From: Prolixibacteraceae bacterium
GTDB taxonomy: Bacteria; Bacteroidota; Bacteroidia; Bacteroidales; Prolixibacteraceae
Direction of reading: 5' to 3'
DNA length: 64,000 nt
Assembly (NCBI GenBank): GCA_021740385.1
Contig: JAIOZY010000011.1
Location: 1-64,000 of the forward strand
The notes below the pieces were generated by a model. The model was given only the letters and a program-made list of their open reading frames with translations. It was not told the DNA's origin and did no database searches. Shown here one piece after another: positions 39,912 through 50,727 of the stretch (position 1 is the stretch's first letter; every line of letters begins with the position of its first letter). The position numbers and the translations under genes were made by a program.

Positions 39912-40667
39912 TCATAACCGAACCGGAATATTTTTCATGTGCAAGAATTGTTTCAAATCGGGTATAGCAATTTCTTTGTAATGAAAAATACTGGCGGCCA
40001 ATCCTGCATCGGCTTTCCCTTTGGTGAATACATCAACAAAATGATCCATGTTGCCGGCACCGCCCGAAGCAATAATGGGGATTTTGAGCATATCGGCCAT
40101 GCGTGCCAGTTCGGCATTGGCAAAACCGTTTTTGGTGCCGTCGTGGTCCATGCTGGTAAAGAGGATTTCACCTGCGCCACGATTTTCGGCCTCTTTGGCC
40201 CAACTGAACAATTCTTTTTCGGTGGGAATGCGCCCCCCGTTAACAGTTACTGTCCAATGTCCATCATAATTTTTTGCATCGATGGCCACAACCACAAATT
40301 GGGTTCCGAAATTCAAGGCCATATCGTCGATAAGTTTCGGGTTACGCACTGCCGATGAGTTTATCGAAACCTTATCGGCACCGGCACTCAGCAATGCATC
40401 GGCATCTTTCAATTCGCTAATTCCACCGCCCACGGTAAACGGTATGTTAATTTCGCGGGCAATGCGTTTTACCAGCTCCACAAAGGTTTTTCGGCCTTCG
40501 TGCGTTGCCGTGATGTCGAGAAACACCAGTTCATCAGCGCCCTGTTCGGCATAGAGTGCGCCCAGTTCCACGGGATCGCCCACGGCTTTTATCCCGACAA
40601 AGTTAATGCCTTTCACGGTCTGGCCGTCTTTAATATCAAGGCAAGGTATGATTCGTTTTGCTAACAT
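39912..40667 (-). CDS. hisF: Imidazole glycerol phosphate synthase cyclase subunit (HisF)
   Basis: 251 residues, full length. The (βα)8 barrel starts [15 protein letters not shown] with catalytic Asp11. The phosphate loops FTVGGGIS and ASGGAGN and the catalytic Asp in [16 protein letters not shown] are present. With HisH (43917-44513) it converts PRFAR and glutamine into IGP and AICAR. It is separated from hisA by SatD-DUF3307 and a repeat-bounded element whose left edge lies 25 bp from this start codon. Confidence 0.97.
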
Positions 40668-40671
40668 GTTT

Positions 40672-40911
40672 TTAGTTTAACAGTTTAAAAAGGCAGAAGG
40701 CAGAAGGCAGAATAAAAAGACTTAATCTTTCTTTCAACCTAAGATAAATATTTCCTGAACTTTTTTCTTTTTCGCTTAAATGTTTTTGCTTTAATACTTT
40801 TATGATAATCTTGGGTTGTAATACAAAATATTTATTATATATCCATTGTGATATAAAAACCAATATTCCTGTTACGACAGGTACTAAAATTGCTATTAAT
40901 ATACCTTCCAT
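40672..40911 (-). CDS. Small membrane protein inside the heptamer-bounded element
   Basis: 79 residues. One N-terminal helix ([20 protein letters not shown]) is followed by a basic segment. The last ~13 residues ([13 protein letters not shown]) are read from the terminal TTCTGCC repeats, so the original C-terminus is lost or the gene was captured with its end replaced. No family is recognised. It may be cargo or a chance frame; the hydrophobic start favours a real small protein. Confidence 0.4.
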
Positions 40912-41401
40912 AATAACATCTAATTTCTTCTACTTGACAAACTTCTGCCTTCTGCCTGATAAACTTCCACCTAATTCTTCCTTTTGTTTTCCTTTATTTT
41001 TCGAATTAAACTTGAAAGCATTTTTTCAATTTCGACACTCAATGTATTTACCTCATCGTATTTTTTCTTACTGAGATATTTTAGTCTAAATCCAATTTCA
41101 AGTTGTGTCTGGAATTCGTACAATGAGCCAGATGCAATTTGTAAAAACCGAATGTAATCATTTGTGCTATTTCTGCCATATCCTTCTGCAATATTGCTGG
41201 GTATTGATATACCACTTCTTCTAATTTGACTTGTTAATCCATAAATTTCTTCATTCGGGAATTTTTTAGTTTCAGAATAAATCATTTCAACAAGGGTCAT
41301 GGCCTTTTGCCATACATTTAAATCTCTGTAAGTTTTCATTTTTATTTAAATTTTGGTGAATAATCTTTTTTCTTCAGCCCTTCTGCCTTCTGCCTTCTGC
41401 C
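40692..41401. mobile_element. Candidate mobile element: four-helix-bundle gene bounded by inverted heptamer arrays
   Basis: The left end is three perfect GGCAGAA units (40692-40712). The right end is three perfect TTCTGCC units (41381-41401), the exact inverted complement. A two-unit array (40943-40956) lies between the four-helix-bundle gene and the small membrane gene. The element is 710 bp, starts 3 bp from the stop of the DUF3307 gene and ends 25 bp before hisF. No target duplication is obvious. No transposase or reverse transcriptase is encoded. Confidence 0.6.
40971..41339 (-). CDS. S23/four-helix-bundle family protein
   Basis: 122 residues, the family that includes proteins encoded by 23S rRNA intervening sequences and the Avd accessory proteins of diversity-generating retroelements. 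The recognisable core is SIPSNIAEGYGRNSTNDYIRF and then GSLYEFQTQLEIG; the family pattern is I..NI.EG.GR. It is basic at the C-terminus (RKIKENKRKN), fitting nucleic-acid binding. It is a distant paralogue of 50289-50648, which is flanked by a different tandem repeat. Its function outside rRNA IVS is unknown. Confidence 0.88.
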   Translation of the reverse strand: MKTYRDLNVWQKAMTLVEMIYSETKKFPNEEIYGLTSQIRRSGISIPSNIAEGYGRNSTNDYIRFLQIASGSLYEFQTQLEIGFRLKYLSKKKYDEVNTLSVEIEKMLSSLIRKIKENKRKN

Positions 41402-41404
41402 TCT

Positions 41405-42088
41405 CTAACTCCTGCCTAAATACCTAATTCCTATCCCAACCACCACCGCAACTAAAAACGAAACCAGCGTTCCCAGCAGGAAATATTCGGCTTTTGGATT
41501 TCCTTCCTTTTTTATTTCACTGAAACGGAACACCGATTTGGCGGCTACCAGGAAACCAATAGCCTGGAATTGTCCGGCAAGGATGATAATCAGTATCAGG
41601 ATTCGTTCAATGATTCCAATCCACGCCGAGGCATCGGCTTTCATTGATTTGCTCTCTATCCGTGTTATTGGCTGCAAGAATTTTCCAATCAATATTCCGG
41701 CAGGAGTGGTTACCAGAACAAAACCTGCTGCATAAACCCAAAAATCTGTAAAAGACTCCTCCAAAACAATACTGGTTGCAAAAGTTAAAAGCGCCCATAA
41801 AATAGTAATGTGCAATGCCTGATCGATCAGAAAAAACAAAAGGTTGTCGCTGGTTTTTGACTTTAGTACATCGATAAAGTAATGAGTTACAAAAATTGCA
41901 GGAACGAACCACCATAAGTCAATTTGCAATGTAAACATAACCGGCAAAACAGAAGCTATCGCTGCATGTAAAAACAGGTGTTTCGATTTCCAACCGTTTT
42001 CGCGTTTCGACTCAATCCAGCTCTCGGGTTGCAGCCAAAAATCGGCAATAAGATGCCCGGTAATCATGGCGTAAAAGAGGGTGTTCAT
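41405..42088 (-). CDS. DUF3307 membrane protein
   Basis: 227 residues with ~6-7 hydrophobic segments. The DUF3307 pattern is visible at the start: ITGHLIADFWLQPESWIESKRENGWKS and later FVTHYFIDVLKS. The family is often paired with SatD-like regulators, as here (2-bp gap). The function is not established. Its stop codon (41405-41407) lies 3 bp from the heptamer array of the four-helix element. Confidence 0.8.
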   Translation of the reverse strand: MNTLFYAMITGHLIADFWLQPESWIESKRENGWKSKHLFLHAAIASVLPVMFTLQIDLWWFVPAIFVTHYFIDVLKSKTSDNLLFFLIDQALHITILWALLTFATSIVLEESFTDFWVYAAGFVLVTTPAGILIGKFLQPITRIESKSMKADASAWIGIIERILILIIILAGQFQAIGFLVAAKSVFRFSEIKKEGNPKAEYFLLGTLVSFLVAVVVGIGIRYLGRS

Positions 42089-50253: not shown

Positions 50254-50727
50254 GAAAGCAATAGGATGCAATAGAACACTATCGAATGCTATTGTATATT
50301 TTTTTCTAATGATTTTACGTAATTCCAAAGCTTAACTTGAAGATTATTACATTCTTGTTTGAATGAATCATAGATATCATGTCCTATCAAGCCTCGATTG
50401 TATGATTTAAATAGCCACGTAGTCGTTTCATATAATGAACCTCTTGCAAAAATGCAAAATCGACGATTGTCTTTTGGAGATAAACGACCAAAACCTTCTG
50501 AGATGTTTGCACCAATTGAATCAGCAGCATCGGTCAATTGTTGCCCAATACCCCGCTTTTCAAACCATTCCCATTTGATAACAATATCCCAGACTTTATC
50601 TCCAAGGTTGTTCGCTAAATTATACACTTCTAATTCTTCAATTTTCATTCTTTAAGTTATTAAGGTATATTTTCAATTGTATTTTTTCATTACGTTCAAC
50701 TGCTTTCTATTGCGTTCTATCGCGTTC
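50254..50727. mobile_element. Candidate mobile element: four-helix-bundle gene bounded by inverted decamer arrays
   Basis: The left array at 50254-50293 has four 10-bp units (GAAAGCAATA, GGATGCAATA, GAACACTATC, GAATGCTATT). The right array at 50688-50727, read on the minus strand, has GAACGCGATA, GAACGCAATA, GAAAGCAGTT, GAACGTAATG. The consensus is GAAnGCAATA, inverted between ends. The 474-bp unit holds one gene and lies exactly between hisD and hisC. HisD's last residues and stop codon are read from the right array. Confidence 0.6.
50289..50648 (-). CDS. S23/four-helix-bundle family protein
   Basis: 119 residues. Core motif SIGANISEGFGRLSPKDNRRF, then ARGSLYETTTWLFKS, is the same family pattern as at 40971 but a different branch (acidic/aromatic N-terminus MKIEELEVYNLANNLGDKVW). 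It is the only gene in the decamer-bounded element, and its stop lies within the left array. It may bind the flanking repeats or the corresponding RNA hairpin; this is inference from its rRNA-IVS and Avd relatives. Confidence 0.88.
   Translation of the reverse strand: MKIEELEVYNLANNLGDKVWDIVIKWEWFEKRGIGQQLTDAADSIGANISEGFGRLSPKDNRRFCIFARGSLYETTTWLFKSYNRGLIGHDIYDSFKQECNNLQVKLWNYVKSLEKNIQ

What the first reader, a model, noticed from the sequence alone, without database searches (positions are those of the whole stretch)
40692..41401. Four-helix-bundle gene in a unit closed by exactly inverted heptamer arrays
Seen: three perfect GGCAGAA units at 40692-40712 and three perfect TTCTGCC units at 41381-41401, with a further two-unit array inside, enclosing an S23/four-helix-bundle gene and a small membrane gene. 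The unit sits between the DUF3307 stop and hisF in the middle of an operon. Known: S23-type proteins are encoded by 23S rRNA intervening sequences, and Avd relatives serve diversity-generating retroelements. Inference: a small mobile or amplifying element in which the protein handles tandem-repeat ends. No transposase is present, so the mechanism would be new or borrowed in trans.
Basis: partly seen in the sequence, partly recalled or inferred. Interest (0 to 1): 0.8.

Follow-up and report, generated by a model that had tools for sequence, protein, structure and literature searches.

The report
Operon-inserted genes with inverted tandem-repeat arms
A small gene sitting inside a histidine operon, framed by mirror-image runs of a 7-letter repeat, is one copy of a widespread family of inserts of the kind known from 23S ribosomal RNA, and sampled genomes without this gene family almost lack the puzzling short tandem repeats that its carriers have between their genes.

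Summary
GGCAGAA x3 (41381-41401, minus strand) and its exact inverse (40692-40712) enclose a PF05635 four-helix-bundle (FHB; S23/IVP) gene between DUF3307 and hisF. Five relatives lack the insert. All 11 FHB genes of this genome appear to have inverted arrays, each with its own 6-10 (once 22) nt unit. Across Bacteroidota, flanks of 104 FHB genes are inverted-complementary in 51% (controls 3.7%) and tandem in 73% (8.6%); cyanobacterial and gemmatimonad examples look alike. The arms co-vary, the 5' arm is purine-rich, the upstream gene is always co-directional, and repeat length follows protein lineage. One junction (mutA-mutB) shows all states among relatives: bare, FHB insert, remnant, gene-less arm pair, and similar arms around a different gene (GxxExxY nuclease-fold). 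6-8-mer arrays are almost absent from sampled FHB-less genomes. The host has no detectable reverse transcriptase. The published Coxiella 23S rRNA IVS has the same plan (S23 gene, heptamers, terminal stem, RNase III excision). Best reading: an IVS-type element living in mRNA operons, closed by a tandem-repeat stem. Mobility and RNA excision are inferred, not shown.

The parts
41381..41401 (-). 5' arm in coding orientation: GGCAGAA x3, starting 3 nt after the DUF3307 stop
40971..41339 (-). FHB gene (PF05635 23S_rRNA_IVP / TIGR02436), 122 aa, four-helix bundle
40942..40957 (-). internal array GGCAGAA x2, same direction as the 5' arm
40672..40911 (-). small ORF, 79 aa, hydrophobic N-terminal stretch; C-terminus encoded by the 3' arm; no convincing homologues found; doubtful part
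40692..40712 (-). 3' arm in coding orientation: TTCTGCC x3, exact inverse of the 5' arm, just before hisF
   Evidence: pairs with the 5' arm in the RNA fold of the element
41405..42088 (-). upstream neighbour, DUF3307 protein (PF11750)
   Evidence: directly followed by hisF in five relatives
39912..40667 (-). downstream neighbour hisF
50289..50648 (-). second FHB gene in the window, in the same his operon region, between genes that read as hisD and hisC
   Evidence: hisD/hisC read from sequence
50693..50727 (-). 5' arm of the second FHB: degenerate decamers (GCAATAGAAC-type)
50258..50289 (-). 3' arm of the second FHB: inverse degenerate decamers (GTTCTATTGC-type)
   Evidence: 24-nt arm alignment, 20 matches

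Best explanation
The unit is an intervening-sequence (IVS) type element sitting in a protein-coding operon instead of 23S rRNA. It has an S23/FHB gene between two inverted arms, and each arm is a short tandem array. Shown by sequence: it is an insert relative to related genomes (or was lost from them), its arms belong to it (they co-vary, have a fixed polarity, and their unit length follows the FHB lineage), and it lies in the sense direction of the host transcript. Inferred: the two arms pair in the polycistronic mRNA into a slippage-tolerant stem that closes the element, RNase III cuts that stem as in rRNA IVSs, and the host cistrons stay functional so the insert is tolerated. Inferred, weaker: the ring-forming FHB protein binds the repeated unit and promotes copying of the element and of bare arrays to other intergenic gaps. 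This would explain gene-less arm pairs, solo arrays and the near absence of such arrays from FHB-less genomes.
For: Empty his junction in five relatives. All 11 FHBs of the genome with inverted arrays by inspection. IR z>4 in 51% of 104 FHB versus 3.7% of 245 control genes, tandem 73% versus 8.6%; 53% and 64% in 78 other named loci. Cyanobacterial, gemmatimonad and Riemerella loci. Arms match their own partner (17.5) better than others' (10.2), also at one orthologous site, permutation p 0.001. 5' arm purine-rich 99:16. Upstream gene co-directional 89/89 versus 150/188 (82). Unit length clusters on the FHB tree, 15 versus 37 changes, and the nearest FHB at another site shares it in 76% versus 43%. 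mutA-mutB site in all states. Adjacent copies in one operon with the same unit, a different subfamily with a different unit. 6-8-mer arrays per 100 kb: 0.14 in FHB-less, 1.5 with 1-2 FHB, 4.9 with 4 or more. Inverted array pairs 33 in 1129 kb versus 0 in 696 kb; three gene-sized pairs found at unselected places encode FHB (100, 102). RNA stem closes the window element, z -3.8. The Coxiella rRNA IVS has S23 ORF, heptamers, 28-bp terminal stem and RNase III excision.
Against: No movement or RNA excision was observed. Own-genome copies are old (at most 52% identical) and orthologous sites are long-lived, so movement is rare. No clean target-site duplication could be read. Unit letters are only weakly tied to protein similarity; only the length is. 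Co-direction may reflect need for a promoter rather than an RNA mechanism. About half of FHB loci do not reach z>4 with 150-nt flanks. The array-versus-FHB genome comparison covers 39 genomes that are not phylogenetically independent, and some FHB-rich genomes showed no arrays in the small sample. In the window the inverted arm lies beyond an extra ORF.
Confidence: 0.6

Rival explanations
1. A DNA-level mobile element in the manner of REP/RAYT: inverted array arms are the DNA substrate (ssDNA hairpin), FHB is the array-binding factor, an unknown host or trans-acting enzyme (possibly the nuclease-fold GxxExxY protein) does the cutting, and solo arrays and gene-less arm pairs are non-autonomous copies.
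For: Gene-less inverted pairs and solo arrays of the same unit; array density follows FHB count; a nuclease-fold gene with a similar kind of arms occupies the same site in relatives.
Against: The insert is always in the sense direction of the upstream gene (82), not expected of free DNA transposition without selection; no transposase seen at the loci read; GxxExxY and FHB arms differ in unit type.
Confidence: 0.25
2. Arrays came first: short tandem repeats arise in intergenic gaps for other reasons, and FHB or GxxExxY genes use them as landing sites or are kept there.
For: Solo arrays in the genome; heptamer-like letters in the empty his gap of relatives; solo arrays at mutA-mutB in some genomes.
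Against: Arms are inverted, have fixed purine polarity relative to the gene and co-vary; bare junctions of 1-12 nt exist at mutA-mutB (67); 6-8-mer arrays are nearly absent where FHB is absent.
Confidence: 0.1
3. A domesticated regulatory gene: the arms form a hairpin that controls expression of FHB or of the downstream cistron, with no mobility.
For: Long-lived orthologous sites; strong RNA stem; arms close to stop and start codons.
Against: Unit changes freely between copies; gene replaced by GxxExxY or absent inside one genus at the same site (67); many unrelated host operons.
Confidence: 0.12
4. An Avd-like accessory of a diversity-generating retroelement or another reverse transcriptase supplied in trans.
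For: Fold similarity to Avd (110) and a sub-threshold bAvd match (6).
Against: No RVT_1 match in the host genome despite 11 FHB genes; RT in 83 but FHB in 153 of 198 Bacteroidota genomes (61, 28).
Confidence: 0.03

Closest known systems
23S rRNA intervening sequences (IVS) with S23p ORF, e.g. Coxiella burnetii (PMC4990558)
   Same: S23/FHB gene, complementary ends forming a stem, tandem heptamers (GACAGAT) before the ORF, sense orientation in the host RNA
   Different: host is a polycistronic mRNA, not rRNA; whole arms are tandem arrays with element-specific unit; many copies per genome; RNase III excision not tested here
Heptamer simple repeats of cyanobacteria (STRR), Xanthomonas/Nostoc GGGAATC-type (PMC4692102), Beggiatoaceae TAACTGA (PMC4679880)
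   Same: intergenic heptamer arrays, in Xanthomonas often as convergent pairs; Xanthomonas campestris also encodes the S23 protein Xcc0516 (2gsc)
   Different: no mention of S23/FHB genes in the two papers searched for it
REP/REPIN with RAYT
   Same: a gene flanked by inverted copies of a repeat that is also dispersed genome-wide without the gene
   Different: no tyrosine transposase seen; repeats are tandem arrays with a different unit at each copy; comparison rests on own knowledge of RAYTs
Avd of diversity-generating retroelements
   Same: four-helix-bundle fold
   Different: no reverse transcriptase found in the genome; template/variable repeats were not looked for

Membership tests
23S rRNA IVS (S23p type) | encodes an S23/IVP protein | tested here: met
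   PF05635 E 4.6e-42, 2gsc match
23S rRNA IVS (S23p type) | complementary ends that close the element as an RNA stem | tested here: met
   exact inverted arms; predicted MFE closes on them, z -3.8
23S rRNA IVS (S23p type) | tandem heptamers next to the ORF, as in Coxiella | tested here: met
23S rRNA IVS (S23p type) | inserted in 23S rRNA | tested here: not met
   lies between DUF3307 and hisF; other copies also in protein operons
23S rRNA IVS (S23p type) | excised by RNase III | not testable with these tools
   needs RNA from the organism
DGR Avd | works with a reverse transcriptase | tested here: not met
   no RVT_1 in the genome
DGR Avd | passes Avd curated cut-off | tested here: not met
   bAvd 30.5 of 40 bits; DivGenRetAVD 29.1 of 80
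RAYT/REPIN | Y1 (TnpA_REP) transposase next to the repeats | tested here: inconclusive
   only FHB or GxxExxY genes seen between arms at the loci read; no genome-wide Y1_Tnp search was made
RAYT/REPIN | dispersed non-autonomous inverted repeat pairs | tested here: met
   gene-less inverted array pairs in FHB-bearing genomes, none in FHB-less

The most novel reading that the evidence does not exclude
A widespread class of mobile elements whose ends are inverted short tandem arrays rather than fixed sequences. The arm unit is rewritten in concert on both sides, the cargo is either an FHB or a GxxExxY nuclease-fold protein, and these elements generate the heptamer arrays long known in Cyanobacteria and Xanthomonas and seen here in Bacteroidota; rRNA IVSs are one branch of the class.
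Probability: 0.45. Interest if true: 0.92.

Novelty: new variant of a known kind. Interest (0 to 1): 0.82.

Why it matters
It gives a testable origin for the unexplained heptamer arrays of many bacterial genomes and a natural context for S23/'four helix bundle' proteins, which are abundant, structurally solved and without known function. It also suggests that rRNA IVSs are a special case of elements that sit in ordinary operons, and it puts a second orphan family (GxxExxY) in the same frame.

Tried and rejected
RT in trans: rejected for this genome. Insertion inside RNase P RNA, suggested by flanks of L051/L075/L096: Rfam shows rnpB intact beside the FHB gene, claim dropped. Unit letters as a lineage trait: only a weak relation; unit length is the lineage trait. 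Small membrane ORF as a second cargo family: no convincing homologues in 40 family genomes. Rfam match of the element: none. Recent transposition inside this genome: copies at most 52% identical. The widest FHB alignment gave no scan pattern. Other phyla could not be used as search centres, so the array-versus-FHB comparison stays within Bacteroidota. Composition artefact: controlled by dinucleotide shuffles and by other genes of the same loci.

Full report
OBSERVATION. The arrays are present as described: GGCAGAA x3 at 40692-40712, TTCTGCC x3 at 41381-41401 and TTCTGCC x2 at about 40942-40957. They are the only perfect heptamer arrays of 21 nt or more in the window, against 0.005 expected in Markov resamples. 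Read along the coding strand the order is: DUF3307 stop, GGCAGAA x3, FHB gene, GGCAGAA x2, a 79-aa ORF, TTCTGCC x3, hisF. The FHB protein is PF05635/TIGR02436. Its predicted structure is a four-helix bundle at pLDDT 97, matching the S23 family structures 2gsc and 2rld and more distantly Avd.

EMPTY SITES. Five relatives with hisA-SatD-DUF3307-hisF in the same order have only a short gap where the unit lies here. The unit is therefore an insert here, or was lost elsewhere. A better-sampled junction is mutA-mutB (methylmalonyl-CoA mutase subunits), where this genome has another FHB. Among 30 related genomes, 11 carry FHB with short arrays on both sides (mostly inverted; in G028 also in direct orientation). 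Three carry a different gene, a GxxExxY (PF13366 / TIGR04256) nuclease-fold protein, between inverted arrays. One has an inverted array pair with no gene, one has inverted arrays around the start of an FHB-like reading frame and nothing more (read by eye; too short for the profile), and others have solo arrays or a bare junction (1 or 12 nt). Different states occur within one genus: g8 has FHB in two genomes and GxxExxY in one; g10 a bare gap and GxxExxY; g18 FHB and a gene-less pair.

GENERALITY. The genome has 11 FHB genes. By inspection all lie between short arrays that are mainly inverted, each with its own unit of 6-10 nt, one with a longer pattern of about 22 nt. Automatic scoring used 150-nt flanks, local alignment of the upstream flank with the reverse complement of the downstream flank, and dinucleotide shuffles. 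It gives z>4 for 51% of 104 nonredundant Bacteroidota FHB genes and 3.7% of 245 other genes in the same loci; tandem arrays in either flank 73% versus 8.6%. 78 further named loci give 53% and 64%. These are underestimates where the arm lies further out, as in the window. Loci on cyanobacterial plasmids, including cas6-FHB-cas4 and cas10-FHB-cmr3 operons, on a Gemmatirosa plasmid and in Riemerella mostly look the same; so does a contig labelled Thiobacillus, whose bin assignment was not checked.

ARMS BELONG TO THE ELEMENT. Each 5' arm pairs better with its own 3' arm than with those of other copies (17.5 versus 10.2), also among orthologous mutA-mutB sites (14.9 versus 11.1, permutation p 0.001). 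The 5' arm is purine-rich in 99 of 115 cases and lies close to the gene. The upstream neighbour is co-directional in 89 of 89 FHB loci against 150 of 188 controls; some loci are orthologous sites, so these are not all independent. Unit length is 7 in 88 and 8 in 25 of 128 typed loci. It is clustered on the FHB tree (15 changes versus 37 shuffled) and shared with the nearest FHB at another site in 76% versus 43%. Within one ABC operon of G009 two sister FHBs carry hexamer arms and a third, of another subfamily, carries heptamers; in G001 two sister FHBs sit in successive gaps of the cys operon with the same hexamers. The window's own his operon region holds a second FHB with decamer arms. Unit letters change fast and are only weakly tied to protein similarity.

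ARRAYS ELSEWHERE. GGCAGAA arrays occur at eight other places of this genome, intergenic as far as read, without an FHB gene beside them. In 20-kb samples taken without regard to FHB position, intergenic 6-8-mer arrays number 0.14 per 100 kb in 18 FHB-less genomes, 1.5 in seven with 1-2 FHB and 4.9 in fourteen with 4 or more (Spearman 0.55, p 3e-4). The congeneric pair G152 (no FHB) and G093 (9 FHB) shows 0 and 8 arrays in 100 kb each. Inverted array pairs number 33 in 1129 kb of FHB-bearing genomes (part of that sequence was chosen for FHB) and 0 in 696 kb of FHB-less genomes. Three gene-sized pairs at unselected places proved to encode FHB, one with an in-frame stop; a fourth, GC-rich pair looks like chance. 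Most of the others at unselected places have little or nothing between the arms. These samples are modest and the genomes are related, so the trend needs a phylogenetically corrected whole-genome test.

MECHANISM. The RNA of the window element is predicted to fold with the two arms as its closing stem, z -3.8. The Coxiella 23S rRNA IVS has the same plan: S23 ORF, GACAGAT heptamers before it with copy number varying between strains, a 28-bp terminal stem, and RNase III cleavage at the first repeat (PMC4990558). The simplest account is that these are IVS-type elements in mRNA, tolerated because their stem is processed and because they sit between cistrons in sense direction. How they spread is not shown. 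A reverse transcriptase is not needed in this host as far as RVT_1 detects. A repeat-binding role of the FHB ring, with DNA- or RNA-level copying of arms by host enzymes or by GxxExxY, is inference.

NOVELTY. No paper found in the searches links S23/FHB or GxxExxY genes with inverted tandem arrays in operons, or heptamer arrays with FHB genes outside the rRNA IVS; only open-licence papers could be searched. IVS elements themselves are known, hence 'new variant of a known kind'; the mobile-element reading would be a new class.

Noticed in passing
L276, L284, L287 (mutA-mutB gap); L305-L334: GxxExxY (PF13366/TIGR04256) genes, up to 16 per genome, are also often flanked by inverted and direct short repeats, many with CACAGAG/CTCTGTG-like units of 8-10 nt.
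   Followed up: partly
window 50258-50727: A second FHB gene in the same his operon region, with decamer instead of heptamer arms.
   Followed up: partly
L265, L267, L272 (cyanobacterial plasmids): FHB elements sit inside CRISPR operons (cas6-FHB-cas4, cas10-FHB-cmr3).
   Followed up: no
L051, L075, L096: In genus g6 an FHB gene lies directly before the RNase P RNA gene; in L051 its ORF is cut short and runs into rnpB.
   Followed up: partly
window 40672-40712: The array is read as the C-terminus LPSAFCLF of the small ORF; array-encoded protein tails of this kind may occur in annotated hypothetical proteins.
   Followed up: no
L003: The FHB at G000:C98 is framed by longer, roughly 22-nt repeats containing CGAAGCGAAC-type words, in both directions.
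   Followed up: no
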